41,222 nt of DNA from Azoarcus sp. (lineage in GTDB: Bacteria > Pseudomonadota > Gammaproteobacteria > Burkholderiales > Rhodocyclaceae): contig JAIRPB010000090.1 in assembly GCA_031257305.1 (NCBI GenBank), forward strand, positions 1 through 41,222. The letters are read 5' to 3'. How positions within the stretch are numbered: the stretch's first letter is position 1; the number at the start of each line of letters is the position of its first letter. Positions 93 to 37,321 of the stretch are shown piece after piece. The notes beneath the pieces were generated by a model that did not search any database, had not been told where the DNA came from, and worked only from the letters and a program-made list of their open reading frames with translations. Made by a program: the position numbers and the translations under genes.

Positions 93-3000
93 CTATTTCG
101 TTGGCATAGCCCGCACATCTCCCGTTTCAGCCTCCCTTATCCGCATATTCCTAAACGCCACCGAGAGCATGAGCTTGACGCGGTTGATTTGGTTGACTTC
201 GGATGCGCCGGGGTCGTAGTCGATGGCGATGATGTTTGAATTTGGGTAGGAGGTTTTGAGCGCCTTGATGACGCCTTTGCCGGCGATGTGGTTGGGCATG
301 CAGGCGAAGGGCTGCATGCAGACGATGTTGGGGACGCCTTGCTCGATGAGTTCTACCATTTCGCCGGCCAGAAACCAGCCTTCGCCGGTTTGGTTGCCGC
401 GTGAGAGGAACGGGGCGGCGCCCGCCGCGATTTGGTCGATGGTGGGGGGGGCGACGAAACGGGTGCTTTCGTTGAGTGCGCGGCGCAGGTCGCGCCGGTA
501 AAATTCCATCGCTTTGATGATGGTGTTGCCCGCCAGCGCAGCCAGACGGCTGCGCGAGAGGTAGCGGTAGTTGAAATCGTGGTCGTAGGCGCAGTACAGG
601 AAAAAATCCAGCAGGCCCGGCATGACGGCTTCGCCGCCTTCGTCCTCGATGATGCGGACGATGTCGTTATTGGCGCCAGGGTTGAATTTGACGAGGATTT
701 CCCCGACGAGGCCGACTCTCGGTTTTTGGGCATCGTTGAGCGGCAGCGTGTCGAAGTCTTTGACGATGGCGCGGACGTTGCGGCGGAAACTTCTGAAGTC
801 GCCGTCAAAAACGGATTCTTGGCAGCGTTCTAGCCAAGAGCGGTAGAGCGCGTCCGCCGACCCCGGAATTTTTTCGTAGGGGCGGGTGCGAAAGACTGTT
901 TGCATAAAGAGGTCGCCATACACCACGCCGAGCATGAGGCGGTGGATGAGTTTTAGGCTCATCTTGAAACCGTCGTGCTTTTCCATCCCCATTGTGTTGA
1001 ACGAAATGATGGGGATGTTCGGGAAGCCTGCGTCTTGCAGTGCTTTGCGCATGAACGCGACATAGTTGGTGGCGCGGCAGCCGCCGCCGGTCTGCGCAAT
1101 CATTACGGCTGTTTTGGCGGGGTCGTGCCCGCCGGAGGTGAGGGCTTCGATGATTTGCCCGACGACCATGATGGACGGGAAGCAGGCGTCGTTATTGACG
1201 AAGCGTAGCCCCAAGTCGATGGCTTGCGGCGAGATTTCTTCTAGCACTTTGACTTGGTAGCCGCATGCCCGGCAGGCGGGTTCGATGAACTGGAAGTGCA
1301 TGGGCGACATTTGCGGCACTAGGATGGTGGCAATGTCGCGCATTTCGGCGGTGAACCGGGGGCGGGCGGCGGGCGGGTGGAAATGGATGATTTGGGCGGG
1401 CGGTTTTTCGCCGCGTTCTTGTAGCGCGGCTTTGAGCGAGCGGATGCGGATGCGCGCCGCGCCGAGGTTGCTGCCTTCGTCGATTTTGATGCTGGTGTAA
1501 ATTTTGCTGCGGCGGGCAAGGATTTCGTGAACTTGTTCAACGACAATGGCATCTAGCCCGCAACCAAAAGAGTTGAGGTGGAGCACGTCGAGAAGGGGTT
1601 CGTTGGAGGCCAGCGCGGCGGCGCGGTAGAGGCGGGCGTGGTAGGTCCATTGGTCGACTACCCGTAGCGGTTCGTTGAGCTTGCCGAGGTGGGAGACGGA
1701 GTCTTCTGTGAGCACGGCCATGCCTAGCGAGGTGATGATTTGCGGGATGCCGTGGTGGATGGCGGGGTCAACGTGGTAGGGGCGGCCGGCGAGGATGATG
1801 CCGTGACGGCCTGTTTCTTTGAGGTAGTCGAGCGTTTCTTCGCCTTTGCGGGCAATTTCGCGCTTCATGCGGGTTTGCTCGGCCCATGCCAAGCCTAGGG
1901 CGCGGCGGATTTCGGCGGCGCGGATGTTCGGGAAAACCTTCGTGAGTTGTTTGGCAAGGTTTTTTTCATTTTCCAGCGCGAGGAACGGCTGAATCATGAC
2001 AACGCTGTTTTCTTTGAGGTAGTCGATGTTGTTGCGGATGAGTTCCGGGTATGACGTGACCACCGGGCAGTTGTAGTTGTTGTGGCTGTCGGCGAATTCT
2101 TTTTGCTCAAAGGGGATGCAGGGGTAGAAGATGGTTTTTACGCCCTGTTCAACAAGGTCGATGATGTGCCCGTGCACGAGTTTGGCCGGGTAGCACACGG
2201 TGTCGGAGGGCAGGGTGTCTAGCCCTTTTTCTAGCAGGATGCGGGAAGAGGGCGAGGAGAGGCGCACCTCGAAACCCAGTTCGGTGAGGAAGGTGAACCA
2301 CAGCGGGTAGTTTTCAAAGATGTTGAGCGCGCGCGGGATGCCGATAACGCCGCGTGGGGCGTTTTTGCGCGGCTCAAAGGCAAAAATGCGTTCGTATTTG
2401 TAGGCGTAAAGGTCGGGGATGTCGTCGGCTGTTTTTGGTTTGCCTAGGCCGCGCTCACAGCGGTTGCCGGAAATGAGCTTGCGGCCATCCGGGAAACGGT
2501 TGACGGTCATGGCGCAGGTGTTGGTGCATAGGCGGCAGCGCGCGACGGAATGCTTGACCTCGAAATTCTGCAAATCTTGGATTGGCAATATGGTGCTGGC
2601 AGGGAGGTGGCTTGCTGTATTTGCTGCGGGGGCATGGTATGTAGCGTCCCGGCGTTCTTTTGCGATAAGCGCCGAGCCAAACGCGCCCATCAGCCCTGCG
2701 ATGTCTGGCCGCACGGCTTCGCGGCCTGAAATGAGTTCAAAGGCGCGTAAAACGGAGTCGTTATAAAACGTGCCGCCCTGCACGACGATGTGCTGGCCTA
2801 ATTCTTCGGGGTTTTTGATTTTGATGGCTTTGATAAGCGCGTTTTTGATAACAGCGTAAGACAGCCCCGCTGAAATGTCGGAGACCGACGCGCCTTCTTT
2901 TTGCGCCTGCTTGACGCTGGAGTTCATAAAAACCGTACAGCGCGAACCGAGGTCTGACGGCGCGCGTGAGGCCAGCGCCTCGTGGGCGAAATCAGCGATG

Positions 3001-4400
3001 GGCATTCCGATGGATTGCGCAAAGGTTTCGATAAACGAGCCGCAACCCGAAGAACACGCTTCGTTGAGCAGGATGTTATCGATGACGCCGTCGCGGATGC
3101 GCAGGCATTTCATGTCTTGCCCGCCGATGTCGAGAATGAAATCGACATCAGGCAGGAAATGCTTGGCCGCTTTGTAGTGCGCGATGGTTTCGACTTCGGA
3201 ATAGTCGAGCCGGAAGGCTTCGCGGATGAGCGCCTCGCCGTAGCCCGTGACGGAGGAGGCGGCGATATAGGCGGTTTCGGGCAGTTTGGCGTAGATGTCT
3301 TTAAGGATGTTGCCCGCGATTTTGATGGGGTCGCCTTCATTGCTGCCGTAATACGTGTAGAGCAGTTCAAGGTTTTCGCCAAGCAGCACGGCTTTGGTGG
3401 TGGTTGAGCCGCCGTCGATGCCTAAGAAAACCGGGCCGCGGTAGTCCGCGAGTTGCCCGCGTTCAACCCGCGCTTTTTGATGCCGCGCATAAAACGCTTG
3501 GCGCTCTTCGTTATCGGAAAAAAACGGCTTCAGCGTGCCGGATTGCGCTACCGCAAACGTGGAGAGTTCTTCAAAAGCGGCGAGCACGGTTTTGAAGGTG
3601 TGTTTTTCTTTTTCTGTGCCGTATAGGGCCGCGCCAATGGCGACGAACATTTCACTGTCGTCAATCTGCACCCGGTTTTCGGGCGGGACGGCAAGCGTTT
3701 CAATAAAGCGGTTTTTGAGTTCGGGCAAAAAATTGAGCGGCCCGCCTAAAAAGGCGATGTTGCCGCGAATCTTGCGGCCGCAGGCCAGCCCGGTGATGGT
3801 TTGGTGCACTACGGCTTGGAAAACGGACCGGGCGATGTCCTCACGCGCCACGCCTTCGTTGAGCAGGGGCTGGATGTCGGTTTTGGCGAACACGCCACAG
3901 CGCGCCGCAATGGGGTAGATGTTTTTGGCACGGCTGGCGAGGTCGTTCAGCCCTTGCGCGTCGGTTTTGAGCAAAACCGCCATTTGGTCGATAAACGCCC
4001 CCGTGCCCCCGGCGCAGGAACCGTTCATCCGCTGTTCAACGCCGTTGGTGAAGAACGTGATTTTGGCGTCCTCGCCGCCCAGTTCAATGGCTACGTCAGT
4101 ATGCGGGGCGCGTATTTCGATGGCTCTGGAGCACGCGATGACTTCCTGCACAAAATGAAAGCCTAGCGTTTCGGCTACGCCAACGCCGCCAGAGCCGGTG
4201 AGCACAACGGAAACTTCGTCATCCGGGGCTAATATCCCCGCCGCCGCAAGTTCTGTGAGACACTGCGCCGCTGTTTTGCGTACTTCGGAAAAATGGCGCG
4301 TGTAAGACCTAAACGCCAGTTGCCCATGTTGGTTTAGCACAGCCAATTTAACGGTTGTCGAACCAATGTCGATACCGATACGATGCAATTCCCCGTTCAC
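93..4400 (-). CDS. Large 2-hydroxyacyl-CoA dehydratase activase-like protein (two BcrA/BadF/HgdC-type ASKHA domains + DUF2229-like + HgdB-like C-terminal region)
   Basis: 1435-aa ORF; two ASKHA phosphate-binding motifs (GIDIGSTTVKLAVL near the N-terminus, GIDGGSTTTKAVLL in the middle), GGxDAK/GGQDMK motifs, GSCAGGTGAF and ACSSGCGSF Cys motifs, GIPRALNIFENYPLWFTFLTELGF (DUF2229-like), Cys cluster CRLCTNTC. Confidence 0.85.
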   Translation of the reverse strand: MNGELHRIGIDIGSTTVKLAVLNQHGQLAFRSYTRHFSEVRKTAAQCLTELAAAGILAPDDEVSVVLTGSGGVGVAETLGFHFVQEVIACSRAIEIRAPHTDVAIELGGEDAKITFFTNGVEQRMNGSCAGGTGAFIDQMAVLLKTDAQGLNDLASRAKNIYPIAARCGVFAKTDIQPLLNEGVAREDIARSVFQAVVHQTITGLACGRKIRGNIAFLGGPLNFLPELKNRFIETLAVPPENRVQIDDSEMFVAIGAALYGTEKEKHTFKTVLAAFEELSTFAVAQSGTLKPFFSDNEERQAFYARHQKARVERGQLADYRGPVFLGIDGGSTTTKAVLLGENLELLYTYYGSNEGDPIKIAGNILKDIYAKLPETAYIAASSVTGYGEALIREAFRLDYSEVETIAHYKAAKHFLPDVDFILDIGGQDMKCLRIRDGVIDNILLNEACSSGCGSFIETFAQSIGMPIADFAHEALASRAPSDLGSRCTVFMNSSVKQAQKEGASVSDISAGLSYAVIKNALIKAIKIKNPEELGQHIVVQGGTFYNDSVLRAFELISGREAVRPDIAGLMGAFGSALIAKERRDATYHAPAANTASHLPASTILPIQDLQNFEVKHSVARCRLCTNTCAMTVNRFPDGRKLISGNRCERGLGKPKTADDIPDLYAYKYERIFAFEPRKNAPRGVIGIPRALNIFENYPLWFTFLTELGFEVRLSSPSSRILLEKGLDTLPSDTVCYPAKLVHGHIIDLVEQGVKTIFYPCIPFEQKEFADSHNNYNCPVVTSYPELIRNNIDYLKENSVVMIQPFLALENEKNLAKQLTKVFPNIRAAEIRRALGLAWAEQTRMKREIARKGEETLDYLKETGRHGIILAGRPYHVDPAIHHGIPQIITSLGMAVLTEDSVSHLGKLNEPLRVVDQWTYHARLYRAAALASNEPLLDVLHLNSFGCGLDAIVVEQVHEILARRSKIYTSIKIDEGSNLGAARIRIRSLKAALQERGEKPPAQIIHFHPPAARPRFTAEMRDIATILVPQMSPMHFQFIEPACRACGYQVKVLEEISPQAIDLGLRFVNNDACFPSIMVVGQIIEALTSGGHDPAKTAVMIAQTGGGCRATNYVAFMRKALQDAGFPNIPIISFNTMGMEKHDGFKMSLKLIHRLMLGVVYGDLFMQTVFRTRPYEKIPGSADALYRSWLERCQESVFDGDFRSFRRNVRAIVKDFDTLPLNDAQKPRVGLVGEILVKFNPGANNDIVRIIEDEGGEAVMPGLLDFFLYCAYDHDFNYRYLSRSRLAALAGNTIIKAMEFYRRDLRRALNESTRFVAPPTIDQIAAGAAPFLSRGNQTGEGWFLAGEMVELIEQGVPNIVCMQPFACMPNHIAGKGVIKALKTSYPNSNIIAIDYDPGASEVNQINRVKLMLSVAFRNMRIREAETGDVRAMPTK

Positions 4401-6404: not shown

Positions 6405-6430
6405 GCGGTTAGAAAAGTCTGGTTTTGGAA

Positions 6431-6457
6431 AGCGGGAGCGTGCTCCCGCTTTTTATT
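6431..6457 (+). terminator. Rho-independent terminator downstream of rho
   Basis: agcgggagc-gt-gctcccgct inverted repeat followed by ttttattt. Confidence 0.8.
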
Positions 6458-7091
6458 TACTGTGATTCTCGCTTTCTGCTTTCATGTGCAATAACAGCCG
6501 ATGTACCGAGGTAGAAGAGTCCTCACGTGCCTGTTTCTCTAACCATTCTCCATTTTCTATGGCGGTATCAAGACGCGGAAAGAGTTCGTCGACAATATCG
6601 TCATTGGCTTTTTTATAATTCTTTATATGGCACTCACTAATCCTTTGCACTATTTCGGCGCAACAACTAAAAGGCGTATCCGTTTTCTCGAAATGTAGCA
6701 ATACCCAAAGCTCAAAGCAGGGAATGGAAACCATAGGCTTAATCGGCAAACCGCGTTTTGCCAATTTAGAAATTTCGTTAAGCGCCTGCTGATAACTAGT
6801 GTGCCTGTCGCGGTCAAACACACAAAAAATGTGGTCGTAGCCGCCCTTCTCTGCTTCCTTTTTAGCGCAGCCTACAACGTTGGACGGAGCTGATTTCGAG
6901 CCAGTATTGGCAGTGATAACGTGGAAATTCAAATGAAAAAAGTCGCGGCCACACAGTTTTTTGAAATAACATTTTTCAGTTTCTCCCTCGCAGACAATCA
7001 ACGTAGTTGAGCGCGGCGGCTTTTGTCCCGGTGTGCGGCGGAACGAATCTGGCGAGCGTAACGGAGAAATTGGTTTGCGCTTTTTTGCCAT
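6453..7091 (-). CDS. RloB-like TOPRIM-family protein
   Basis: Starts MAKKRKPISPLRSP at 7091 (the ORF track extends to 7115). Motifs: TTLIVCEGETEKCYFKKL (TOPRIM-like Glu motif), YDHIFCVFDRDRH (DxD), PMVSIPCFELWVLLHFE (RloB-family signature). Confidence 0.82.
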   Translation of the reverse strand: MAKKRKPISPLRSPDSFRRTPGQKPPRSTTLIVCEGETEKCYFKKLCGRDFFHLNFHVITANTGSKSAPSNVVGCAKKEAEKGGYDHIFCVFDRDRHTSYQQALNEISKLAKRGLPIKPMVSIPCFELWVLLHFEKTDTPFSCCAEIVQRISECHIKNYKKANDDIVDELFPRLDTAIENGEWLEKQAREDSSTSVHRLLLHMKAESENHSK

Positions 7092-7095
7092 ACCG

Positions 7096-8313
7096 TTACC
7101 ACTTCCACTGCCCAATCACGGGAATGGCTCCGTAACGGCCTGTTAGATAACCACGCTCCCATGCTTCATCCTTGCGCGGTGAGTAATCAAGCAAGGAATA
7201 AAGTTGCGTGGCCCGTTTTTTATCCTTTTCCGCAAACCAGATTTGGTCACGCCGAAACAAATCGGGAGCTAGTAAGGATGTGTTATGCGTAGTGAAAATG
7301 AGTTGCGCGTTTTTTGTGTTCTGTGGACTGTTGAAGAATTCAATAAGAAAGCGCGTGAGCATGGGATGCAGGCTACGGTCTAGTTCGTCGATGAAAAGTG
7401 GGAGGCCATATTTGAGGCTATACCTCCAAGGTCCCGCTAGCCTAAACAATTGGCGTGTGCCGTCGGATTCCTCGTCAGAAAAATCGAATGCCTTTTCGCC
7501 ATTGTCAGTCTTATGCCAAGCGAGGATGGTCTCTTCCCGCAGTCCTTCTTCTGATTCATATTTCTTCAACTCCAGCCGGTCTATGCCGAGATCGGCTTTA
7601 CGCACGAAATCTGTTAATACTGCATATTCTTCTTTATCAGTCTGGAACATTCCCTCTGAGGTCATATCATGGGTGCTACCTGTACCGCTTAACCCAAGTA
7701 CACGTAGATAAGAAAGCCAATTATAAAACTTGCGTAATTGTTCGCAATTCAGGCTCACAGATGTAGTTAGAAATAGAGCATCTTTGCGTGTCGAATCCCG
7801 CCAGACTTGATGCTGGCTCCGCCCTCCAGCAAATTTTGGGCCAAACCACCAGTCATAACTGTCTGTATCTGGCCTGTATTCGCGCTCAAACCATCGCTGC
7901 GGACGGCTATCGGGATAACAAACCAACCATTCCCGGTATATGCAGTCTTGCTTTGCCGACAAACCATAGTGATAGCGCACGTTATCTATGAAAACGACAA
8001 TCTCAAATTCGCACGGCGCCTCGTCACTATCCCCGAGTTTGAATGGCGCCATAGTAGGAAAGAACATTTTTCTGGGCCATAGCGAATGTCGTACCCAATA
8101 GCTCAACGTATTCATCGCTTTGAGCAAATTGCTCTTCCCACTCGCATTGGCCCCATAGAGCACTGCCGACCGCAGTACCCGTGCCCCCTTCAATCCCTTG
8201 CACGGCTCGAATGTGTTGTAATCCTGAAGCGTGGTGTCTTTGCTGGCGACCAAACTAAGCGTTTGCTTTCCGGCAAAGGAACGGAAGTTGGTAACGCTGA
8301 ACTCGATGAGCAT
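7096..8313 (-). CDS. AAA15/RloA-like ABC-type ATPase
   Basis: LIEFSVTNFRSF N-terminus, Walker A LYGANASGKSNLLKAM, Walker B LPLFIDELDRSLHP, QLIFTTHN; ends 4 nt before the RloB-like start. Confidence 0.85.
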   Translation of the reverse strand: MLIEFSVTNFRSFAGKQTLSLVASKDTTLQDYNTFEPCKGLKGARVLRSAVLYGANASGKSNLLKAMNTLSYWVRHSLWPRKMFFPTMAPFKLGDSDEAPCEFEIVVFIDNVRYHYGLSAKQDCIYREWLVCYPDSRPQRWFEREYRPDTDSYDWWFGPKFAGGRSQHQVWRDSTRKDALFLTTSVSLNCEQLRKFYNWLSYLRVLGLSGTGSTHDMTSEGMFQTDKEEYAVLTDFVRKADLGIDRLELKKYESEEGLREETILAWHKTDNGEKAFDFSDEESDGTRQLFRLAGPWRYSLKYGLPLFIDELDRSLHPMLTRFLIEFFNSPQNTKNAQLIFTTHNTSLLAPDLFRRDQIWFAEKDKKRATQLYSLLDYSPRKDEAWERGYLTGRYGAIPVIGQWKW

Positions 8314-8343
8314 GATGACCTCAAAACGAATGTTTTGCCGCTA

Positions 8344-8366
8344 TTTTTGCAAATTTTCTGCAAAAA
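8344..8366. repeat. Inverted repeat TTTTTGCA-N7-TGCAAAAA upstream of the RloA-like gene (candidate operator)
   Basis: Perfect 8-bp arms with 7-nt spacer (aattttc), about 31 bp upstream of the 8313 start codon, in an AT-rich divergent intergenic region. Confidence 0.5.
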
Positions 8367-8472
8367 AACGAGTGAAATTTGTTTTATTGAGTGTTTTTAT
8401 CCTTTAATCCGCTATAAAAACCCAAAAAGACATCCTCCGCAGAAATCCACATAGTCGTGTATTCTCGCCCCC

Positions 8473-9606: not shown

Positions 9607-10418
9607 GCGCCGCGAAAGCCAATGCCCATCGGGTAGGCTCCCATGCGGAACCCGTTATCCAAGCGCGGGGCATTTGCAACCGCTTTGGAAAACAGACTGT
9701 TCATGAAGGGCTGAATCTGGATGTCTTGCGCGGGGAAGTGCTGGCCGTCGTCGGCGGTTCGGGGACGGGCAAATCGGTTCTGCTGCGCACGCTGATTGGC
9801 CTTAACCGCCCTAGCGCGGGGTCGGTACGCTTGTTTGGGCAGGATATATACGCTTCACAGGCGGCGGGCAGTGCCAGTTTGTTGAGGCGCATTGGGGTAC
9901 TGTTTCAGCAGGGCGCGTTGTTTTCTTCGATGACAGTATTGGAAAATGTGGCGCTGCCCCTGATTGAGCATACCCGATTATCATCAGACGAAGCCCAGCG
10001 TCTGGCCGCGCTTAAGATTTTGCTTGCCGGGTTGCCTGCTGACGCGGGCGGCAAATTGCCCAGTGAGCTTTCCGGCGGCATGGTAAAACGGGCGGCATTG
10101 GCGCGGGCGCTTGCGCTTGACCCAGATATTCTTTTTCTGGATGAGCCAACGGCGGGGCTGGACCCCATTGGTGCGGCGGCATTCGACCAATTGATTTTGA
10201 CCCTGCGCGGCGCGTTAGGGTTAACGGTTTTTCTGGTGACGCATGACTTAGATACGCTCTATGCCATTGTGGACCGGGTTGCGGTGCTGGCTAATCGGCG
10301 GGTTCTGGTCAATGATTGTCTGGAAGCCGTCGCGGCAACCGAGAATGAATGGATAAAAGAGTATTTCCACGGCCCACGCGGCCGCGCCGCGCAAACTGCG
10401 CGTAATTGTGAATCATGA
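9600..10418 (+). CDS. MlaF-family ABC transporter ATP-binding protein (start TTG 9600 or GTG 9603)
   Basis: Walker A GGSGTGKSVLLR, Q-loop GVLFQQGALFSS, signature LSGGMVKRAALARAL, Walker B ILFLDEPTAGLDP, VTHD. Confidence 0.92.
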   Translation: MVSAAKANAHRVGSHAEPVIQARGICNRFGKQTVHEGLNLDVLRGEVLAVVGGSGTGKSVLLRTLIGLNRPSAGSVRLFGQDIYASQAAGSASLLRRIGVLFQQGALFSSMTVLENVALPLIEHTRLSSDEAQRLAALKILLAGLPADAGGKLPSELSGGMVKRAALARALALDPDILFLDEPTAGLDPIGAAAFDQLILTLRGALGLTVFLVTHDLDTLYAIVDRVAVLANRRVLVNDCLEAVAATENEWIKEYFHGPRGRAAQTARNCES

Positions 10419-10428
10419 GAGAGGCAAC

Positions 10429-11361
10429 ATGGAAACCCGTGCGCACCATCTTCTGATTGGCCTTTTTACCGTGGGTACGGTGCTGGCCGCGCTTGTCTTT
10501 ACGTTGTGGCTCAATGGCAGCGGCGATGAAGGCGATTTCAAAACGTATGACGTATTGTTTGATGAGGCGGTATCGGGACTCTCGAACGGTAGCACGGTAG
10601 AGTACAAAGGCATCAAAATTGGTACCGTGCAGGATTTGAGGCTTGACCCTACCAACATGCGCCGTGTGCGCGCCCGGATACGGGTGGAGCCGGTGGCGCC
10701 CATTTTTACCGATACCCGTGCGCGGCTTCATACCGCTGGCATTACCGGGTTATCGACGATTACCCTGACTGAAGGCACCGGCGAACCTTTGGCCCCGCGC
10801 CCCGGCGAAATTCTGGTCATTCCCACGGAACTTTCCTCGCTTAGCAAACTGCTGGATAGCGGCGAGGACGCGATGACCAACGTCAACCGCACGCTGATTC
10901 ATGTTCAGGCGCTCTTTTCGGAAAACAACCTCGCTAACGTTGCCCGCACGCTCGAAAATCTGGAACGCGCCACGAGTGCGTTATCTGCCGGGCAGGAAGA
11001 TATGCGCCAGACGCTTGAGCAATTGTCCCGCGCCAGCAAACAGGCCAACGTGGTGCTGGGCGAGACATCCCAACTGATACAGGATGCCCGCCGCTTGCTG
11101 GATGGGCCGGGGCAGGGCGTGTTCGATAGCGCCCAGCGTTCGATGGTGTCGCTGGAACACGCGATGCAAAGCCTCGATAAGCTGTTGGCGGATAACCGAG
11201 TCCCGTTGGATACGGGGCTGAAGGCTTTGGCGGATTTGGGTTCTGCCGTCACAGAACTGCGCTCAACCCTAGCGTCTTTGCGCACGATTGCCCGCCGGCT
11301 TGAAGAGCGTCCTGCTGATTATCTGCTGGGCCTTGAACCTACCCGGGAGTTCAAACCATGA
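10429..11361 (+). CDS. MCE/MlaD domain protein
   Basis: METRAHHLLIGLFTVGTVLAALVFTLWL single TM, MCE domain VLFDEAVSGLSNGSTVEYKGIKIGTVQDLRLDP, C-terminal helical region. Confidence 0.9.
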   Translation: METRAHHLLIGLFTVGTVLAALVFTLWLNGSGDEGDFKTYDVLFDEAVSGLSNGSTVEYKGIKIGTVQDLRLDPTNMRRVRARIRVEPVAPIFTDTRARLHTAGITGLSTITLTEGTGEPLAPRPGEILVIPTELSSLSKLLDSGEDAMTNVNRTLIHVQALFSENNLANVARTLENLERATSALSAGQEDMRQTLEQLSRASKQANVVLGETSQLIQDARRLLDGPGQGVFDSAQRSMVSLEHAMQSLDKLLADNRVPLDTGLKALADLGSAVTELRSTLASLRTIARRLEERPADYLLGLEPTREFKP

Positions 11362-12044
11362 TGTTCAGGCGCTTTTGCTGTTTCCTTCGCAAGCTCTGCG
11401 TTTTATGCCTATTGCCTTGCGCGGGCTGTACGATTTTGCCCAAACCTGAACCCGTCGACGTCTACCTCTTGCCTGTTTCACGCGATGCCGCACGTCCCGC
11501 TGACACAGCATTGCGGACATGGTCGCTGCGCATTGCCCGCCCGGATTCCAGCGGGCAACTGCTCGGGCAGCGCATCCTCGTTATCCCCGAACCCAACCGG
11601 GTGAGCGTCTATCAGGGCGCGAATTGGCACGAGCCAGCCGCGCTGTTGCTACGTAACCGTTTTTTTGACGCATTTAGGGCCGACGGGCGCATCAATGCGC
11701 TGTCGACCGAAGAAATGCGGACTTACGCGGATTTTGAACTGGCGAGCGAACTCGCCGCATTTCACAGCGAATATCGGCAGGAAGGCAAACCGCCGGAGGT
11801 GTTAATCAAGCTCGATGCCCGCGTAATTGATACGGCCAGCCGCCGTATTGTGGCCAGCCGCGCTTTTGAAGTGCGGGAAGCCGCCGCCGACGGTGCGGTC
11901 CCCACCGTGGTGGCGGCTTTTGGGCGGGCCGCCGACCAGCTTTGTGCTGACCTCGTGGCGTGGGCTATTGCCGGGGCCGATGGGGCGGGGCGGGCGAACG
12001 CCCCGGCAGAAACCTTGCCGGTGAAGGAAGCGCCCCAACCTTAA
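11358..12044 (+). CDS. ABC-type transport auxiliary lipoprotein (PqiC/DUF330-like)
   Basis: Lipobox LLPCAGC, then LRIARPDSSGQLLGQRILVIPEPNRVSVYQGANWHEPAALLLRNRFFDAF; ATGA overlap with the MCE gene. Confidence 0.82.
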   Translation: MMFRRFCCFLRKLCVLCLLPCAGCTILPKPEPVDVYLLPVSRDAARPADTALRTWSLRIARPDSSGQLLGQRILVIPEPNRVSVYQGANWHEPAALLLRNRFFDAFRADGRINALSTEEMRTYADFELASELAAFHSEYRQEGKPPEVLIKLDARVIDTASRRIVASRAFEVREAAADGAVPTVVAAFGRAADQLCADLVAWAIAGADGAGRANAPAETLPVKEAPQP

Positions 12045-12055
12045 AAGCGGTTGCC

Positions 12056-12286
12056 CTATTTATGACGGACAAAAAACTCGTAAGTGCTGTCCGGCATTTC
12101 TTTTTGGCTTAGCATCTCGTGCCCGGTTTGGCGGACAAACGCCTCGAAATCCTTGACTGACGCAGGGTCTGACGTGAGCACCCGCACAACCCGCCCGTTG
12201 GGCAAATCAGCCAGCGCCCGCTTGAGTCTCAAAACTGGCAACGGGCAACTCAAGCCCCGCGCATCAACATCTTTGTCAAATTCCAT
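12056..12286 (-). CDS. TusA/SirA-family sulfurtransferase
   Basis: 76 aa; DARGLSCPLPVLRLKRAL motif (CPxP). Confidence 0.9.
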   Translation of the reverse strand: MEFDKDVDARGLSCPLPVLRLKRALADLPNGRVVRVLTSDPASVKDFEAFVRQTGHEMLSQKEMPDSTYEFFVRHK

Positions 12287-12300
12287 CTTGTTTCACCTTA

Positions 12301-13755
12301 TCAACGCAGTTTTCTTGGCGGGTCACGCCATTTTTCCTCAACGGAACGTTTGCGGATTTCGCGCAAGCGCGCGTCAATGGCGGACATCTCGTAAAAGTCG
12401 CCATCCCCGGCGCGGCGCGCCAGTTCTAGCTGTTCGAGCGCGGCCCGCCAAGCGCCCTGCAACACATAGACTTCTGATTGTGCACGGTATTGTGCCGAGC
12501 GGTGGCCCAAATTTGCGTTGGCATGCGCGAGCAGCCCCCACAGCCGGGCATCGTTTCCATGTCCCGATAACGCCCGCCGCACGGTTTTTTCCGCCTCGGC
12601 GGCTTGTCCGCCCGCAATCTGCGCGTCAGCCAGCGCATAGACTAAACTCATGCGGTCTGGAAAATCACGGTACGCGGCCGTCAGGGTTTTAATCGCAGAG
12701 TCCGTATCGTGGCGGGCCATCGCAATTTCAGCGGATAGTCCCGCAACAAGCGGCGAAAACGCGGCCCATCGGCGCATCGCGTCAGCCGTGTGCGCCGCTT
12801 CTTCTAAGCGCCCCTGCTTGAGTTGCGCGTAAGCCAAGCCATAACGTAGCGCCGCGTTGTTTGGGCTGCCCTCGATTTGTCCTGCAAACAAACGTACCGC
12901 TTCAACCGCAGGCATTGACTGGACGCGCAGACGGGCGCGCACATAGCCGAAATCCGGCGAATCAGGGACTTGGCGGTAACGCATGCTCATCACCCGGTTT
13001 TCCATATCGGCAATACGTTCCGTGGTGAGCGGGTGGGTGCGCATATAAGCCGGCGCGCTATTTTCGTATAGGCGTGAGTTGCGCTGTAGCCGCTCAAAGA
13101 ACGCCGCCATCCCGCGTGCGTCAAACCCTGCTGATTCAAGCGTTTGCAGGCCGATACGGTCTGCCTCGCGTTCAAAATCGCGTGAATAACCCAACTGCGC
13201 TTGGGTAGCGCCGGCGACGCCAGATACGATAACCGCTTCACTCACTTGCGGATTCTTAGCCGCGAGTCCCGCCAAAATGGATGCTAACGTCATCCATGTG
13301 AGCTGTTTCTGCTTGCCAATGAGTTGCGCGATATGCCGCTGGGTAACATGCCCGATTTCATGCCCAAGCACCCCGGCTAATTCCGACTCCGACTGTGCCG
13401 CGAGAATCAGGCCAGTATGGACGCCGATATAACCGCCCGGAAATGCGAATGCGTTAAGCATGGCATCTTTCACCACAAAAAATTCAAAAGCGCGTCCCGG
13501 CTCGGCACTTGCCGCCACCAGACGCCGCCCGAGCCGGCTGATGTATTCCGCCACCACCGGGTCGTCGATTACGGACGGGTCTTGGCGCACCTCGCGCATA
13601 ATTTCTTCGCCCATCTGACGTTCTTTGGCAGGCGAAAGGTCATCAACGCCCACGTCCCCCAAATCGGGCAAGCCCGCCGCAAAAGCGTTGGGGATAAGGC
13701 AAAAAAGCAGCACGAGAAGCGATGAAAACCATTTACGCATGATTCCGCGCATCAT
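12301..13755 (-). CDS. M48-family periplasmic metalloprotease with TPR-like C-terminus (BepA/YfgC-like)
   Basis: Signal peptide, HEIGHVTQRH zinc motif, SRDFEREADRIGLQTLESAGFD, THPLTTERI, C-terminal helical repeats. Confidence 0.9.
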   Translation of the reverse strand: MMRGIMRKWFSSLLVLLFCLIPNAFAAGLPDLGDVGVDDLSPAKERQMGEEIMREVRQDPSVIDDPVVAEYISRLGRRLVAASAEPGRAFEFFVVKDAMLNAFAFPGGYIGVHTGLILAAQSESELAGVLGHEIGHVTQRHIAQLIGKQKQLTWMTLASILAGLAAKNPQVSEAVIVSGVAGATQAQLGYSRDFEREADRIGLQTLESAGFDARGMAAFFERLQRNSRLYENSAPAYMRTHPLTTERIADMENRVMSMRYRQVPDSPDFGYVRARLRVQSMPAVEAVRLFAGQIEGSPNNAALRYGLAYAQLKQGRLEEAAHTADAMRRWAAFSPLVAGLSAEIAMARHDTDSAIKTLTAAYRDFPDRMSLVYALADAQIAGGQAAEAEKTVRRALSGHGNDARLWGLLAHANANLGHRSAQYRAQSEVYVLQGAWRAALEQLELARRAGDGDFYEMSAIDARLREIRKRSVEEKWRDPPRKLR

Positions 13756-13921
13756 ACCGCCTTGCGCAAGCGGATGGCGTCAAAATAATTCAATTGCCCG
13801 CCTGTTTTTGCTGAAACAGTGACTAACACTGTGCGGATTGGCTCACCTATACCCTCATTAGACTGTAAAGTGACAATAAAACGCATAAAATACAATAACA
13901 TAAAATAAACACAAAAACATG

Positions 13922-13950
13922 TTGACATACGCACAAGTAATACCTATATT
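13922..13950 (+). promoter_or_regulatory. Sigma-70 promoter upstream of the comEA-like gene
   Basis: TTGACA-N17-TATATT, followed by an aaggag ribosome-binding site before ATG 13983. Confidence 0.7.
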
Positions 13951-13982
13951 AACTTTTCCAGTTAACCCAAAGGAGTATTGTC

Positions 13983-14294
13983 ATGCAACGGTTCCTCCGT
14001 TCTCTCGTTTTGTTTTTCGCGCTCAGCCCCTTGGGCGCGATGGCGCTAGAACCCGTCAATATCAACACTGCGGATTCAGCCGCTCTACAGCAAATTAACG
14101 GCATCGGGGCCGCCAAGGCCAATGCCATCATCGAATACCGCAAAGCCAACGGCCCATTTGCCAAAGTTGAAGATTTGGTCAAAGTGCCGGGAATCGGTGA
14201 AAAATCCCTCGTCCACCTAAAGCCGCAAGTCACCGTAGGTTCCGCCACCTCAGCGGCTCCGGCGGCTAAAGCGGCGGGGGGCAAGGCGAAGTAA
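13983..14294 (+). CDS. ComEA-like helix-hairpin-helix protein
   Basis: Signal peptide; EPVNINTADSAALQQINGIGAAKANAIIEYRKANGPFAKVEDLVKVPGIGEKSL. Confidence 0.9.
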   Translation: MQRFLRSLVLFFALSPLGAMALEPVNINTADSAALQQINGIGAAKANAIIEYRKANGPFAKVEDLVKVPGIGEKSLVHLKPQVTVGSATSAAPAAKAAGGKAK

Positions 14295-14296
14295 AG

Positions 14297-14334
14297 AAAA
14301 AACGCCCGTTTCTTTTTGTGGAAACGGGCGTTTT
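14297..14334. terminator. Bidirectional intrinsic terminator between comEA-like and msrAB-like genes
   Basis: aaaaaacgcccgtttc-tttttgtg-gaaacgggcgtttt, A-tract on one side and T-tract on the other, between convergent genes. Confidence 0.85.
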
Positions 14335-14347
14335 GGAGAGTGGGCAG

Positions 14348-15973
14348 TTATTTAACAAGAGGTTTTAATTCGCCATAGTTTTGTTTGTCCATTTCTTCAT
14401 AAGGAACGAAACGGATTGAAACACTGTTGATGCAATAACGTAACCCGCCTTTTTCTTTAGGACCGTCATCAAATACATGCCCGAGATGGGAATTGCCAAC
14501 GCGGCTTCTTACTTCGGTTCGCTTCATACCATAACTGTTATCGACGTGTTCAGTAATCACTGCTGGGTCAATAGGTTTTGTGAAACTTGGCCAGCCACAG
14601 CCCGAATCAAATTTATCAGCGGAAGAAAATAACGGTTCGCCAGTGACTATATCTACATAAATGCCCGGGCTTTTATGATTCCAAAATTTACCTGAAAAAG
14701 CGCGTTCTGTTCCTGCGTTTTGGGTAACATTGTATTCTTCGGGCGTCAGGATTTTTTTCAATTCTTCATCAGAAGGTTTTGAATAAAGATTGGGATTTAT
14801 AAGCCCCGTTTTTGGGGGCTGAATATCTTTTAGGCTATCAAAACTAATATGGCAATATCCGCCGGGGTTCTTTTTCAAATAATCTTGGTGATATTCTTCG
14901 GCAAGAAAATAATTTTTAATGGGCTGTAATTCTACCGCCAGCGGTTTGTTGTATTTTTTCTGTACCTCCGCCATGACAGAAGCAAGAATTTTTTTGTCGG
15001 CATCATTTGTGTAATACATACCCGTGCGATACTGGCTACCTATATCGTTGCCCTGCCGATTGACGCTAATGGGGTTAATGATTTTGAAAAATTGTTCCGC
15101 AAGGGTTGTGAGGCTAATCGTTTTGGGGTCATAGCGCACATGTACGGTTTCAGCGTGGCCGGTTTTTCCAGAACAGACTTCCTCGTATGTGGGGTTTTCT
15201 TTTGTGCCGTTTGCGTATCCAACGGTGACATCCTGTACGCCGGGAATACGTGAGAAGTATTCCTCGACGCCCCAAAAACAGCCGCCGGCAAAATAAATTT
15301 CATGGAAGTGGGTTGTGTGAGCCATTGTTTTTTTTATATCCAAGGTTTGGTTGGGCATTTCGTTTGTCGGTAAAATTTTGCCAGCAGTTAAGTTTTTAAG
15401 AATCTGCGCGTTCGATTCTTCGCCTCTTGTCTTTTTTAACACTGTGCCGTCTCCGGCTAAATACACCGCCGTGGGATAAGTCCGAACATCGAATTGCTCA
15501 ATGATAGCGCCTGATTCGTCAAAATAAACCGGAAAAGTAAGTTTTTGGGTTTTCGCCCACTGAATGAAATCATCCTTGGGAATTTCCCCGTTTAATCCGG
15601 GGGTAACAATAGAGATTACCGCCACATTTTGCAAAGACGACGCCTGTTTAGCCAGCGCCGCAAAATCCTCAAGTCCCCCCAAACAGGAAGGACACCATGT
15701 TGCCCAGAATTTAATGTAAACCGTTTTGCCTTGAAACTGCGCAAGGTTTATAGGGACACCATCCAACCCCGGCAGGGATTGTCCATAAGCTGATTGGGTG
15801 ATTGATGAAAAATTTTGCATAGGGCGTGTTTTATCTACAGTTTGCGGGTTAAAGAATGCCCAGAAGCCGATGAGCGTGACGAGAAAGACGGCTATCGGAA
15901 AGATTTTGCCTGTTTTGCCTAAAAAATGACGAATACGCTCGGTGTTATCTGAAAAATGGCCTAGGGATTTCAT
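14348..15973 (-). CDS. Membrane-anchored trifunctional TlpA-like thioredoxin / MsrA / MsrB fusion (PilB-type)
   Basis: N-terminal [15 protein letters not shown] thioredoxin motif, Msr[15 protein letters not shown], Msr[11 protein letters not shown] and [16 protein letters not shown]. Confidence 0.92.
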
Positions 15974-19563: not shown

Positions 19564-20049
19564 TCACTCTTCCCGAATATCAACCCCGCCCGTTTCCATG
19601 TCCCAATGCGCGCGCAGGACAAAATCGATGGGGTACGGCTCAAACCAGTAGCTGGCTTCAATACGGAAGCGGGCGTGGTTGTAGCGGTAGGCATCGACAT
19701 TCTCATCGTAAATGACGGAAACTTTCAGAGACTCCGGCAAGATGCGCGGCTCGAAATTAAGCAGGGCAGACTGGATGCCTTCCGCCACGGCGTTGAGGTC
19801 CGACTCGGAGAAGCGCCCGCCAGCGAGGGGCGGGATGCCGAAATTAACCACGGAACGCATGACATGCGGAAAATCCTGCAAATGAAGCTGCCCGGCCAGG
19901 TTCGCGCAATTGAGGAGCCAGTTAAGGTCCCTTAGGATTGTTTTGCGGTAGGCGCTGCGGCTCATGGCGTTGCCGGCCTGCGAGAGCCTATCTAAAAGGG
20001 TGGGCAGAAAAATATCGCCCGTGGGAGTAATTCGGATAGGCTGGCTCAT
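19564..20049 (-). CDS. tssE: T6SS baseplate protein TssE (gp25-like)
   Basis: gp25/TssE features: LLDRL...ILRDLNWLLNC..., VVNFGIPPLAGGRF, IQSALLNFEPRILPESLKV; in a T6SS operon. Confidence 0.88.
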   Translation of the reverse strand: MSQPIRITPTGDIFLPTLLDRLSQAGNAMSRSAYRKTILRDLNWLLNCANLAGQLHLQDFPHVMRSVVNFGIPPLAGGRFSESDLNAVAEGIQSALLNFEPRILPESLKVSVIYDENVDAYRYNHARFRIEASYWFEPYPIDFVLRAHWDMETGGVDIREE

Positions 20050-20741
20050 TGCAAACCGCCGCTCATGAGCTTGCAGAACAGGCTTTCGTCGGGGAGGCCC
20101 TCGTGAATAATCCGTTTAGCCGGATGTTCAGAGAAATCAGCCGCTTCCGCCCACCAAAAACTATGCCTTTTGCGTTCTGTGAATAAGGCAGGCAATTCTG
20201 CCCAAGTGAAATGGTCTTGGAGCACGGTCGGCGCTTCCCCGCTCCCGCCAATACCGAGGTCGCTTAGGATGTTGGCGGTGGAATTGCCCCCGCGTTCTGC
20301 CTCGGTGAGCTGTAAAAGACAATCGCTGAGTTCCTGCACCGAAATGCGTTCAGCGATGGTGCGCCGTAGCGTGATGTCGACACGGTACTGCCAGCGGCTT
20401 TGCGGCGGCAGCACGGCTTGGATTTGGCGTTTGTTGAATGAGCGCAAGGCGATGAGGGGCGAATGCCGCCCGACTTTGTCGATGCTCGGCGCAAAGCAGC
20501 CAATCAGGGCAGGTTTGTCCCAAAGCCCCGCGCCAATCAGAAAATGCCAGAGAGGCGCGATATGGTAGGCCGCCTGCCAGTTTTCGGGAAACTCGCGCAC
20601 AAACGCCGCCATGCCGTTGGACATCCAGCCGTGGAGGGTTTCGTTGAGCGGATGCGGAAGCCCTTTGCCGGCAAAATCACCCACAGCGGGCAATTTCCCA
20701 AACCAGCCCATGTAATCGGGTTTCCAAAAAAATCTAAACAT
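20046..20741 (-). CDS. tagF: T6SS-associated protein TagF (start may be MGWFGKLPAVGDF at 20711)
   Basis: GWFGKLPAVGDFAGKGLPHPL N-terminus typical of TagF; ATGA overlap with tssE. Confidence 0.88.
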   Translation of the reverse strand: MFRFFWKPDYMGWFGKLPAVGDFAGKGLPHPLNETLHGWMSNGMAAFVREFPENWQAAYHIAPLWHFLIGAGLWDKPALIGCFAPSIDKVGRHSPLIALRSFNKRQIQAVLPPQSRWQYRVDITLRRTIAERISVQELSDCLLQLTEAERGGNSTANILSDLGIGGSGEAPTVLQDHFTWAELPALFTERKRHSFWWAEAADFSEHPAKRIIHEGLPDESLFCKLMSGGLQ

Positions 20742-20751
20742 CCGATTGCCT

Positions 20752-21540
20752 TTATGAATTCAGCGGGGGTATCCACTGTGTGCGGGTGGTCATGCCTTTA
20801 TCGTCGCCTTCGATAAAGACGGCCAGCGCACTATAGTTATCTAAATCAGGCGCGGCGGGGTCGGGCAGCTGCGCCATCATGCTGTCAATCCATTGTTCGG
20901 GAGTCTCTGCCTCCCGCAGCGTGGTCTCCATGATTTCTTCGCTGATGTTTTCCCAAAGCCCGTCGGAACACAGCAGAAAAATATCGCCCGTTTGCAGGGA
21001 AAGCGGCTCTTCGCGGATGGCGTGGTCGGGGACGCTCTCGCAGCCTACCGCCGCATACAGCATGTTTCTTTTGCAGTTGCCGCGCAGCGAGCCGGAAAAA
21101 ATACCGGCGTCTATCATGGACTGAAGAACGCTATGGTCCGTTGTCAGGCAACGGGCGCGCCCGCTTCGGAAAAGATAAATGCGGCTGTCGCCCAGATAGC
21201 TCCAGTAGGCTAAACCCTGTTCCGTATCGACAATCAGCGAAGCAATGGTCGTGTTCATTTCGGGATGCTCTGGATGCTGCTGGCGCACATCCGCAAGCGC
21301 CTCGCGGGCCACCGTAATCAGTTCGCCCGCCGCGCCGGGGTCGACGACGGGCGTTGTGGAAAAATATGACAACACCTTTTTGACGACAGTCTCCGAAGCC
21401 AGCGCCCCGCCCCGATGCCCGCCCGCGCCGTCCGCCATCACAAAACAGCCTAGCGTCTCGTTGCCGCAAAAGCCTACCGAGTCTTCGTTGGCCTGCCGGC
21501 CGCCGCGCTCGCTGCGGTGCGCAACCGATAAGTGCATCAT
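20752..21540 (-). CDS. pppA: PP2C-family Ser/Thr phosphatase (PppA-type, T6SS)
   Basis: RQANEDSVG, VMADGAGGHRGG, WSYLGDSRIYLFRSG, LLCSDGLWENI. Confidence 0.92.
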   Translation of the reverse strand: MMHLSVAHRSERGGRQANEDSVGFCGNETLGCFVMADGAGGHRGGALASETVVKKVLSYFSTTPVVDPGAAGELITVAREALADVRQQHPEHPEMNTTIASLIVDTEQGLAYWSYLGDSRIYLFRSGRARCLTTDHSVLQSMIDAGIFSGSLRGNCKRNMLYAAVGCESVPDHAIREEPLSLQTGDIFLLCSDGLWENISEEIMETTLREAETPEQWIDSMMAQLPDPAAPDLDNYSALAVFIEGDDKGMTTRTQWIPPLNS

Positions 21541-23456
21541 GAGCGTCTTGTCCTTTCACCGGATTGCACCGTGAGAATGGCTTTTTCGTAGGCTTCAAGG
21601 AAGGCCGCGCCAAAGAATTCTTGAAAATGGTCGCTGGCTCTTTCACGGATAGCCCTAAAGTGCATCCCGTATTCATCCCACAGCCGCGCTTTGCGCTTGG
21701 CCGGCAATACGTCCTCAACCAAATTTTTGGCGGGCGCATTGCCGCCGAGTTCTGCTGGGTCAAAGCGGTCCAGCACATGATTGAGCGCCGCCTGCATCCC
21801 CGAAATAACGCCAATCTGGTGCGCCCGCAGGTCAACAAAAGCGTTTTGCACCGCATCGACCGGTCCCATGAATCCCGGCGGGGTTCGCCCGAGGAGGCTC
21901 AAAATCGCCGTATTGCCGTCAGGCGAGAATTTGAACGGGTTGTTACGTTCCGGCGCAATCACAGTCACGTTAGCGCGGACAGCTTGTTTTACCACCGTCC
22001 GCCCTGCGATGAGGTCAACCGCCCCCTGCGTGAAGTTGCGCATCAACTGCCCCAGCAGGGTCATGAACGCTTTGTCTAGCCCTGCCCGGTTCGGCAGGCT
22101 GATACCCAAGCCTTCGATGAACGCTTGATAGAGCGCGTCGTCTGACGCCGGAGCCGTCGCGGGGGGCGCAACGGGTGTTTCCGTGGCCGTGGGTTTTTCG
22201 GGAATCGGCGGTTTTGCAACCGGCGGCGGGGCCACGCTTGTGGGCACTACAGCGGGGCGGGGCGGGGCATTCTCCACGGGCGGCGGCGATACGGGCGCAT
22301 TGGTGAGCAGAAAAGAAAGCGGGCCGGTTTGGGTTTGGCCAGCCTCTTTTTCTAAGCCGGAAAGCAGACGGTCAATATCATCTTCCGGCTGGGGCTGGCG
22401 CACGGGGACAGAGGCTATTTCAGGCGGAATAGCCGTTTCTGGAGGAATAGGGACAATAGGCGCTTCGGGCGGGGGAGCCGCCACAGGTTGGGCTGTTGCT
22501 GGGCCGTCATCGCCTAAACCAGAGAGTAGCGCGTCGATTTCGTCCATTCCGGGAATGTTGGGCGCGGCGCTTTCAGCCTGTTCCGGTTTTTGGGCAGGCA
22601 ACCGTTCCTGACGGACGGTGAACTCGTCCGTAGCGCGGGGAGGCTGGAACAGCGCGTTGAGGTCAGAACCGTGGGTTAAATCCATCCGTGGCGCGGCGGT
22701 TTGCGTAACGGGAGCGGTTTTGCCCTGCTGCAAAATGTCCCCAAACGCGCCTCCGCCGCCAGTCTCCCCAAACATTGCCTTGAGCGGGTCAAGGCTGCCG
22801 CTGTCTGGCCGCGTCAAATCCTGCCCGCCGCTGCCCATTGGCGGAGCGTCGTTTAGTAGCGCGTCAATAGCGCCTACCGTGTGGGAGGGATGGCCGGCAA
22901 TGAGTTCATCGCCTTTGTTATCAAGGCTACCGGGGTCAATGCCTTGTGCATTGAGCATCTGAAGGGGATCCCGCTGTGGGGCTGTCGATTTTTCTAGGAG
23001 CGAATCTGGAATCTCCATCTCTTTATCCTTTTTAGAGCCAGCCTCCGATGGCGCGGCCTCTGCCGCTTGCAATCCGGCGTTGAAATTTTTGTTATCTGTG
23101 GCTTGTTCTGGCGTTGAAGGTCTGACCGGGGACGCTTGCCCAACGTATTTCACGTGTAGCACGTAGATGCCGATAACAATCTTATCGTCGTCATACAGCA
23201 CACATTCTGTATCTGGGAGCAGTTCCATGTCATTGACACAGATGGGGTTCTTTTCGCTCACATTGCGCATCACAAACGCGCCCTCGGCATTGAGCGTAAA
23301 ACGCAAGTGCTTGCGCGACACCGTCCGGTAGGGGTCAGACAGGGAAATGATGTTGTCGTGGTCCCGGCCTATCATCTCGCCGTTGCCGTAAATTTCCCCG
23401 GCAACTGGCAGTACGGGAGGAAGGCCGTTATAGGTGAGTGCCCGGATTTCAAGCAT
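21537..23456 (-). CDS. tagH: T6SS FHA-domain protein (Fha/TagH) with long Pro/Ala-rich linker
   Basis: N-terminal FHA (MIGRDHDNIISLSDPYRTVSRKHLRF), disordered linker, C-terminal TagH region PNRAGLDKAFMTLLGQLMRNFTQGAVDLIAGR; ATGA overlap with pppA. Confidence 0.9.
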   Translation of the reverse strand: MLEIRALTYNGLPPVLPVAGEIYGNGEMIGRDHDNIISLSDPYRTVSRKHLRFTLNAEGAFVMRNVSEKNPICVNDMELLPDTECVLYDDDKIVIGIYVLHVKYVGQASPVRPSTPEQATDNKNFNAGLQAAEAAPSEAGSKKDKEMEIPDSLLEKSTAPQRDPLQMLNAQGIDPGSLDNKGDELIAGHPSHTVGAIDALLNDAPPMGSGGQDLTRPDSGSLDPLKAMFGETGGGGAFGDILQQGKTAPVTQTAAPRMDLTHGSDLNALFQPPRATDEFTVRQERLPAQKPEQAESAAPNIPGMDEIDALLSGLGDDGPATAQPVAAPPPEAPIVPIPPETAIPPEIASVPVRQPQPEDDIDRLLSGLEKEAGQTQTGPLSFLLTNAPVSPPPVENAPPRPAVVPTSVAPPPVAKPPIPEKPTATETPVAPPATAPASDDALYQAFIEGLGISLPNRAGLDKAFMTLLGQLMRNFTQGAVDLIAGRTVVKQAVRANVTVIAPERNNPFKFSPDGNTAILSLLGRTPPGFMGPVDAVQNAFVDLRAHQIGVISGMQAALNHVLDRFDPAELGGNAPAKNLVEDVLPAKRKARLWDEYGMHFRAIRERASDHFQEFFGAAFLEAYEKAILTVQSGERTRRS

Positions 23457-23471
23457 TTTTGTTCCTGCCGC

Positions 23472-24107
23472 TTAGTTTGACTTTGGACTCGGTGGCGAGC
23501 ACAGGCCCCGCAAGTCAACGAGATTGCCTTTTACCAGCGTGACATCCACCGTAAAAGGCGGGTCATGCGGGCATTTCACAGAGAGGCTGTGGCGGCCCGG
23601 CGCGACGAGCGCAATCCGCCCTCTTGGCGTGATATTGCCGAGTTCGACGGGGCGGCCATCCACTAACAACGTGGCATTGTCTAGGCCAAGCACCGCCAAT
23701 TGGGGCATCACGATGTCAGCGCGATGCTCAACAACTAACGTTGGGCTTCCCGGCTTCACCACGATTTTGTTTGTTTTATCAGTAGGGGCATTGTTTTTGC
23801 GGTTTGGCGGCAGGGTATCGGCGAGTGCTTGCTGGCCAGACTTCTGCCCTTTCGCTGCCGTAGCGGCAGCACGTTGTTCCGCTTCCGACCGGCCGGTTGC
23901 GGCTAAGACTTCTACCGGGTTATTGGACGCGGCCAGTTCAGTGACCTTATTTGCCGCAATGGCTTGCTGCCCGCTTTCCGTCCCACGGGGCGAATCGAAG
24001 AGCGAAGAACACCCCACGGCCAGCGGCAGGCATGCCAGCGCAAACAGTCCCGCCAACGCAAGACGGGTACGCTGAAAACCTCCGCCCTTAAAAATTCCGC
24101 CTTTCAT
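23472..24107 (-). CDS. Putative lipoprotein with PEGA-like C-terminal domain, T6SS-associated
   Basis: Start at MKGGIFKGGG (24107) preceded by aggaaaggg; lipobox LAVGC; C-terminus NATLLVDGRPVELGNITPRGRIALVAPGRHSLSVKCP resembles PEGA. Confidence 0.7.
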   Translation of the reverse strand: MKGGIFKGGGFQRTRLALAGLFALACLPLAVGCSSLFDSPRGTESGQQAIAANKVTELAASNNPVEVLAATGRSEAEQRAAATAAKGQKSGQQALADTLPPNRKNNAPTDKTNKIVVKPGSPTLVVEHRADIVMPQLAVLGLDNATLLVDGRPVELGNITPRGRIALVAPGRHSLSVKCPHDPPFTVDVTLVKGNLVDLRGLCSPPSPKSN

Positions 24108-24180
24108 CGCTTCCCTTTCCTCACCGTGCGAATCGCCTACAACAAACACAACATTGTTTTCCATCTGCCTGAATGTGTCG

Positions 24181-25302: not shown

Positions 25303-25316
25303 TTTGGCGCACTCCC

Positions 25317-28088: not shown

Positions 28089-28104
28089 ATTGACCTCGAT
28101 GTTT

Positions 28105-31066: not shown

Positions 31067-31072
31067 GCCGGC

Positions 31073-34603: not shown

Positions 34604-34621
34604 TGCCTACCCCCTCTTGGA

Positions 34622-37251: not shown

Positions 37252-37321
37252 TCTTTACCCGGCGAAATAAACAAATAACAATGGCAAGACAATCAGGATG
37301 GCAGGCCGTCCCTGCGTTTGT

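What the first reader, a model, noticed from the sequence alone, without database searches (positions are those of the whole stretch)
6453..8366. Stand-alone RloA/RloB-like ATPase + TOPRIM pair: candidate anti-phage module
Seen: two adjacent leftward genes, an AAA15-type ABC ATPase (GANASGKSN, FIDELDRSLHP, TTHN) followed 4 nt later by a small TOPRIM-like protein (IVCEGETEK, VFDRDRH, PCFELWVLLHFE). They sit between a housekeeping rho and a lipid-transport operon and look more AT-rich than the flanks. Knowledge: RloA/RloB were described as ORFs linked to type I restriction loci in Campylobacter, and the ATPase + TOPRIM logic parallels PARIS (AriA/AriB) and OLD/Gabija-type systems. No restriction genes are visible here. 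Inference: an independent two-component defence or toxin-like unit with the ATPase as sensor and the TOPRIM protein as effector.
Basis: partly seen in the sequence, partly recalled or inferred. Interest (0 to 1): 0.62.

Follow-up and report, generated by a model that had tools for sequence, protein, structure and literature searches.

The report
AbiL-type anti-phage gene pair
Two neighbouring genes that were probably acquired from other bacteria form a complete copy of AbiL, an anti-virus system first described in dairy lactococci; they are intact and widespread but not a new kind of system.

Summary
Two leftward genes lie at 8313-7096 (ABC-type ATPase, 405 aa) and 7091-6453 (RloB/TOPRIM-like, 212 aa), 4 nt apart, intact and AT-rich. 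The pair is AbiL (AbiLi + AbiLii): PADLOC AbiLi E=1.4e-95 and AbiLii E=5e-28, both better than a Lactococcus prophage pair annotated as "abortive phage resistance" proteins. AbiL was described in 1999 and is catalogued in PADLOC. The unit is almost always a two-gene operon (RloB directly downstream in 144 of 153 testable relatives; mirror-tree r=0.91). It occurs in only 4 of 22 genomes of the genus, in non-monophyletic copies at different sites, and also on plasmids and phages. The proposed empty rho-mlaE site test cannot be run, because rho and mlaE were not neighbours in any same-genus relative examined. RloB keeps six residues that match OLD-family two-metal nucleases (E35, E39, D93, D95, E127, K161). 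Best mechanism: a Rad50/PtuA-like ATPase sensor gates a TOPRIM nuclease that aborts infection; target and trigger are unknown. It is not PARIS (no DUF4435, no profile similarity to AriB). New member of a known kind, low interest.

The parts
7096..8313 (-). abiLi (rloA-like): Rad50/PtuA-like ABC ATPase, 405 aa. Walker A G54-x-N-x-x-G-K-S61, signature-like E282-S-x-G-T286, Walker B D309-E310, H-loop H343; C-terminal R355-D-Q-x-W359 and Y389-x-x-G-x-x-G signature of the family
   Evidence: PADLOC AbiLi 1.4e-95; Pfam AAA_21 1.7e-34; motif conservation in 145 sequences; AlphaFold2 pLDDT 93.0; Foldseek to Rad50, SMC heads and PtuA, E down to 3.8e-11
6453..7091 (-). abiLii (rloB): TOPRIM-like putative nuclease, 212 aa; candidate catalytic residues E35, E39, D93, D95, E127, K161
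   Evidence: Pfam RloB 1.1e-32; PADLOC AbiLii 5e-28; residue conservation; AlphaFold2 pLDDT 91.7; profile alignment to OLD TOPRIM in register
8314..8440 (-). AT-rich leader of the operon; probably holds its promoter (no sigma-70-like site was found there by consensus scan)
   Evidence: sequence; GC 37.1% over 8314-8472; scan
6426..6455 (.). strong inverted repeat just after rho; terminator of rho and possibly, read the other way, of the abiL operon (the stop codon of abiLii lies at its edge)

Best explanation
The pair is a stand-alone, horizontally acquired AbiL anti-phage system. AbiLi (the ATPase) probably forms an ABC-type oligomer that holds AbiLii in check and responds to a phage-derived trigger. 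AbiLii is then released or activated as a two-metal TOPRIM nuclease that blocks phage and host growth. Shown here: family membership, intact motifs, operon structure, co-evolution of the two proteins, mobility. Shown elsewhere: one AbiLii homologue is toxic in E. coli, and lactococcal AbiL acts by abortive infection. Inferred: that AbiLii is a nuclease, that AbiLi is the sensor, and what is cut (tRNA or other RNA is a guess from AriB).
For: AbiLi and AbiLii models hit at 1.4e-95 and 5e-28, better than the Lactococcus proPhi7 pair annotated 'abortive phage resistance protein' (4.4e-76 and 4.7e-18). Operon: RloB directly downstream in 144 of 153 testable loci, with a 1-nt overlap in 58 of 144; mirror-tree r=0.91 against a permutation maximum of 0.15. 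ATPase motifs near-invariant in 145 sequences, TOPRIM Glu and first Asp kept in about 99%. ATPase model matches Rad50, SMC and PtuA. Patchy in the genus, non-monophyletic copies at different sites; on plasmids, in a P2-like Klebsiella phage and in 122 viral-contig loci. Literature: AbiL acts by abortive infection with AbiLii as the toxic effector (PMC10440598); F. nucleatum AbiLii is toxic in E. coli (PMC3985639); AriB, in the analogous PARIS system, is a TOPRIM tRNase held by an AriA hexamer (PMC12409363).
Against: Nothing was tested with a phage here. In PMC3985639 the lactococcal AbiLii was not toxic in E. coli, and F. nucleatum AbiLi did not neutralise its AbiLii, which argues against a simple toxin-antitoxin pair. 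The TOPRIM assignment is weak by sequence (Pfam Toprim E=0.032, below cut-off; hhalign P=0.0024), and no solved TOPRIM structure was a significant Foldseek match. The window copy has a long branch (0.86), so its activity could be changed despite intact motifs.
Confidence: 0.72

Rival explanations
1. It is a divergent PARIS (AriA/AriB) system.
For: The ATPase also hits the PADLOC AriA models (5.3e-34), whose best hit behaves like the general AAA_21 domain, and the gene order is the same.
Against: AbiLi scores far better (1.4e-95). The partner has no DUF4435/PF14491 hit, which the published PARIS detection rule requires (PMC9122126), and no profile similarity to DUF4435 (hhalign P=0.85).
Confidence: 0.04
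2. It is a classical two-component toxin-antitoxin pair, AbiLii being the toxin and AbiLi a plain neutraliser, with plasmid or locus maintenance as the main role.
For: F. nucleatum AbiLii is toxic (PMC3985639); related ATPase + TOPRIM pairs are treated as toxin-antitoxin pairs in NetFlax (PMC10440598). Frequent on small plasmids.
Against: F. nucleatum AbiLi gave no antitoxicity; here the pair is chromosomal, between housekeeping genes; an ATPase with full ABC motifs suggests a regulated switch.
Confidence: 0.12
3. AbiLii is not a nuclease effector; the ATPase does the work and the TOPRIM-like domain binds nucleic acid or is dispensable.
For: In E. coli YbjD, a class 1 OLD protein, the Toprim domain is dispensable for the anti-phage phenotype (abstract of PMC13261556). 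No solved TOPRIM structure was matched.
Against: Near-perfect conservation of E35, D93, E127 and H133 across the family is what an active site looks like.
Confidence: 0.1
4. A non-defence function, or a decaying remnant.
For: Long branch of the window copy.
Against: Both frames open, all family motifs intact; patchy and mobile distribution.
Confidence: 0.05

Closest known systems
AbiL (AbiLi/AbiLii), lactococcal abortive infection system (Deng et al. 1999; PADLOC AbiLi PDLC02335, AbiLii PDLC02337)
   Same: Two-gene order, full-length ATPase homology (30% identity to the proPhi7 protein), AbiLii homology with the same EG-TE, FDxD, E-x-W-LLHF and Y-x-K residues.
   Different: Chromosomal, beside rho, and not plasmid-borne; only about 30% identical, so trigger and range may differ.
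RloA/RloB of Campylobacter type I restriction loci
   Same: Same RloB family (PF13707).
   Different: No restriction genes near; the stand-alone state is the common one in the sampled family.
PARIS (AriA/AriB)
   Same: ABC ATPase followed by a small TOPRIM-type protein; likely the same sensor and effector logic.
   Different: Effector family differs (RloB, not DUF4435); no detectable profile similarity.
OLD nucleases / Gabija GajA
   Same: ABC ATPase plus TOPRIM; six candidate catalytic residues match BpOLD E400, E404, D455, D457, E508, K562 in order (PMC6755086).
   Different: Two separate proteins; no helicase (GajB); weak profile match only.
Septu / retron PtuA-PtuB
   Same: ATPase structure is close to PtuA (Foldseek E about 2e-10).
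   Different: Effector is RloB/TOPRIM-like and not HNH; no reverse transcriptase gene in the adjacent genes.

Membership tests
AbiL | AbiLi-type ATPase by profile | tested here: met
   PADLOC AbiLi 1.4e-95, 318 bits; proPhi7 control 4.4e-76
AbiL | AbiLii (RloB-domain) partner directly downstream, same strand | tested here: met
   AbiLii 5e-28, Pfam RloB 1.1e-32, 4-nt gap
AbiL | Abortive-infection phenotype against phage | not testable with these tools
   needs phage assays
PARIS | DUF4435 (PF14491) effector | tested here: not met
   no PF14491 hit up to E=1; hhalign P=0.85; no PF14491 in the genome
PARIS | AAA_15 or AAA_21 ATPase | tested here: met
   AAA_21 120.7 bits, cut-off 27
OLD / Gabija | ATPase and TOPRIM in one polypeptide (with GajB helicase for Gabija) | tested here: not met
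   two separate ORFs; the next genes are rho and mlaE, no helicase
TOPRIM nuclease fold | conserved Glu and DxD in a Rossmann-like fold | tested here: inconclusive
   E35, D93, D95 conserved, Pfam Toprim 0.032, hhalign to OLD TOPRIM P=0.0024 in register; no significant solved TOPRIM match
RloA/RloB in type I R-M loci | embedded in hsdR/M/S locus | tested here: not met
   no hsd genes among the adjacent genes; type I R hits in only 3 of 121 neighbours of relatives

The most novel reading that the evidence does not exclude
AbiLii is a previously unproved two-metal RNA nuclease (tRNA or rRNA) with an OLD-type six-residue centre, held inactive by an AbiLi oligomer and released by a specific phage protein, so that AbiL is a mechanistic sibling of PARIS with an independently derived effector.
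Probability: 0.3. Interest if true: 0.45.

Novelty: new member of a known kind. Interest (0 to 1): 0.17.

Why it matters
AbiL is widespread: 584 or more genome hits and 122 viral-contig loci for the ATPase. I found no mechanistic study of it among the papers searched. The conserved residue set gives a concrete mutational plan for AbiLii. The locus itself adds one more chromosomal copy and shows that the 'restriction-linked' label of RloA/RloB is misleading for most relatives sampled here.

Tried and rejected
Empty rho-mlaE site in relatives: not possible, rho and mlaE are not adjacent in any same-genus genome checked, and both flanks vary. Close relatives by RloB alone in genome contigs: none found; too divergent for back-translated patterns. 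Insertion-element or repeat borders around the pair: no convincing flanking direct or inverted repeats. RloB against solved structures: no sequence relative and only generic Rossmann-like Foldseek hits with E>0.001; in viral models the only significant hit is another RloB. RloB against DUF4435: no similarity. Literature: the terms AbiL, AbiLi, AbiLii and RloB in the open library gave no mechanistic paper on AbiL. Whether the junction is real or an assembly join could not be tested (no reads); the sharp GC drop and intact operon agree with either a true insertion or a rearrangement point.

Full report
Observation. The ATPase is 405 aa and matches Pfam AAA_21 (1.7e-34) better than AAA_15 (1.6e-8); the second protein is 212 aa from the ATG at 7091 and matches Pfam RloB (1.1e-32), with Toprim (0.032) and OLD-like TOPRIM (0.12) below the cut-offs. 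The pair differs in base composition from its surroundings: GC3 is 0.52 and 0.47, against 0.71 for rho and 0.66 for mlaE. The terminator of rho (6426-6455) touches the stop codon of the RloB gene, and the pair fills the whole space up to the mlaE promoter region.

Identity. PADLOC names the pair AbiLi (1.4e-95) and AbiLii (5e-28). As a control, the Lactococcus prophage proPhi7 pair, annotated by its depositors as 'abortive phage resistance protein', scores 4.4e-76 and 4.7e-18. The window proteins align with that pair at 30% and 27% identity, with the same motifs. AbiL has been known since Deng et al. 1999 (cited in PMC10440598 and PMC3985639). PMC10440598 states that RloB-family proteins occur in type I restriction operons and in AbiLii, and that HHpred relates RloB to OLD TOPRIM domains. 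So the finding is a new copy of a known system.

Distribution. RloB occurs in 4 of 22 genomes of the genus, own genome included. The ATPase copies fall in at least three places of the family tree: the window copy and one of the two G021 copies pair with each other next to Polynucleobacter, Competibacteraceae, Accumulibacter and Rhodanobacter; the others lie elsewhere. Their neighbours differ (metG, hemH, mutT-like and others, named here from sequence by eye). The ATPase has matches in 182 plasmid records, RloB in 32. The pair sits on 3.9- and 5.0-kb enterobacterial plasmids and beside the portal gene of a P2-like Klebsiella phage.

Junction. In the same-genus genomes where each gene could be placed, rho and mlaE lie on different contigs or far apart, and what follows rho and what precedes mlaE differ from genome to genome. 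The pair therefore sits at a lineage-specific joint between two blocks (trx-rho and the mla operon), and no ancestral empty site was found to compare.

Operon and co-evolution. Of 160 ATPase loci fetched, 153 had enough downstream sequence; RloB follows directly in 144 (132 by the first rule and 12 more when overlapping start choices were allowed), and one more has it displaced by about 1.8 kb. The sample was drawn with an alignment of paired ATPases, so the figure applies to this clade. In 58 of 144 the genes overlap by 1 nt. Distances between ATPases and between their RloB partners correlate at r=0.91 over 130 pairs; the largest of 500 permutations gave 0.15.

Neighbours. Among 121 genes directly next to relatives of the pair, defence models hit now and then (type I restriction, DISARM, BREX, DarG, MADS, two or three genes each), but no partner recurs. 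The pair is usually a stand-alone unit.

Active sites. In 145 ATPases the Walker A (G54, N56, G59, K60), the E282-S283-x-G285-T286 motif, D309-E310 and H343 are invariant or nearly so. The structure model (pLDDT 93.0) matches Rad50 and SMC heads and PtuA of Septu and retrons (E about 4e-11 to 2e-10). In RloB, E35 is kept in 136 of 138 aligned sequences, D93 in 137, D95 is D in 125 and E in 9, and E127, H133 and K161 are almost fixed. Burkholderia OLD uses E400, E404, D455, D457, T506, E508 and K562 in a two-metal centre (PMC6755086). E35, E39, D93 and D95 fit by profile alignment in register; E127 and K161 fit by order only, and T506 has no clear match. hhalign gives P=0.0024 against OLD TOPRIM, P=0.85 against DUF4435 and P=0.87 against the ATPase as negative control. 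The RloB model is good (pLDDT 91.7), but no solved TOPRIM protein is a significant fold match. So a TOPRIM-type nuclease is likely, not proved.

Mechanism. Most likely AbiLi senses infection and gates AbiLii, whose nuclease activity stops growth. Toxicity of one AbiLii homologue (F. nucleatum) and its absence in another (lactococcal) were reported in PMC3985639; AbiLi of F. nucleatum did not neutralise its partner there, so a simple antitoxin role is doubtful. AriB of PARIS is a two-metal tRNase held by an AriA hexamer (PMC12409363), the closest worked example of the logic; the family is different, so RNA as the target here is only a guess.

Verdict. Observation confirmed, interpretation partly supported, new member of a known kind, low interest.

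Noticed in passing
window 14348-15973 (-): Fused thioredoxin-like + MsrA + MsrB protein (541 aa, PRK14018 family), also AT-rich (GC3 0.42), so perhaps another acquired gene.
   Followed up: partly
window about 19564-39122: Type VI secretion gene cluster: TagH-like FHA protein, TssH/ClpV, TssF, TssM, TssL/DotU, TssK, TssA.
   Followed up: partly
window 93-4400 (-): 1435-aa protein with two stretches matching acyl-CoA dehydratase activase.
   Followed up: no
L077 (G021:C339) 2019-3577: A second AbiL-type ATPase in the same genome as L075, followed by a short RloB-like frame (94 aa), possibly truncated.
   Followed up: no
L078 (G050:C65) about 10227-15948: Distant RloA/RloB-like pair beside small genes that look like TIR-type and other conflict proteins (by eye).
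   Followed up: no
L111, L116, L127, L128, L143, L161, L181, L239: AbiLi-type ATPases without a detectable RloB directly downstream; possible alternative partners.
   Followed up: no
window 6453-8313: The window ATPase lies on a long branch (0.86) although all motifs are intact; RloB lacks the Lys of the usual CEGEKTE motif.
   Followed up: no
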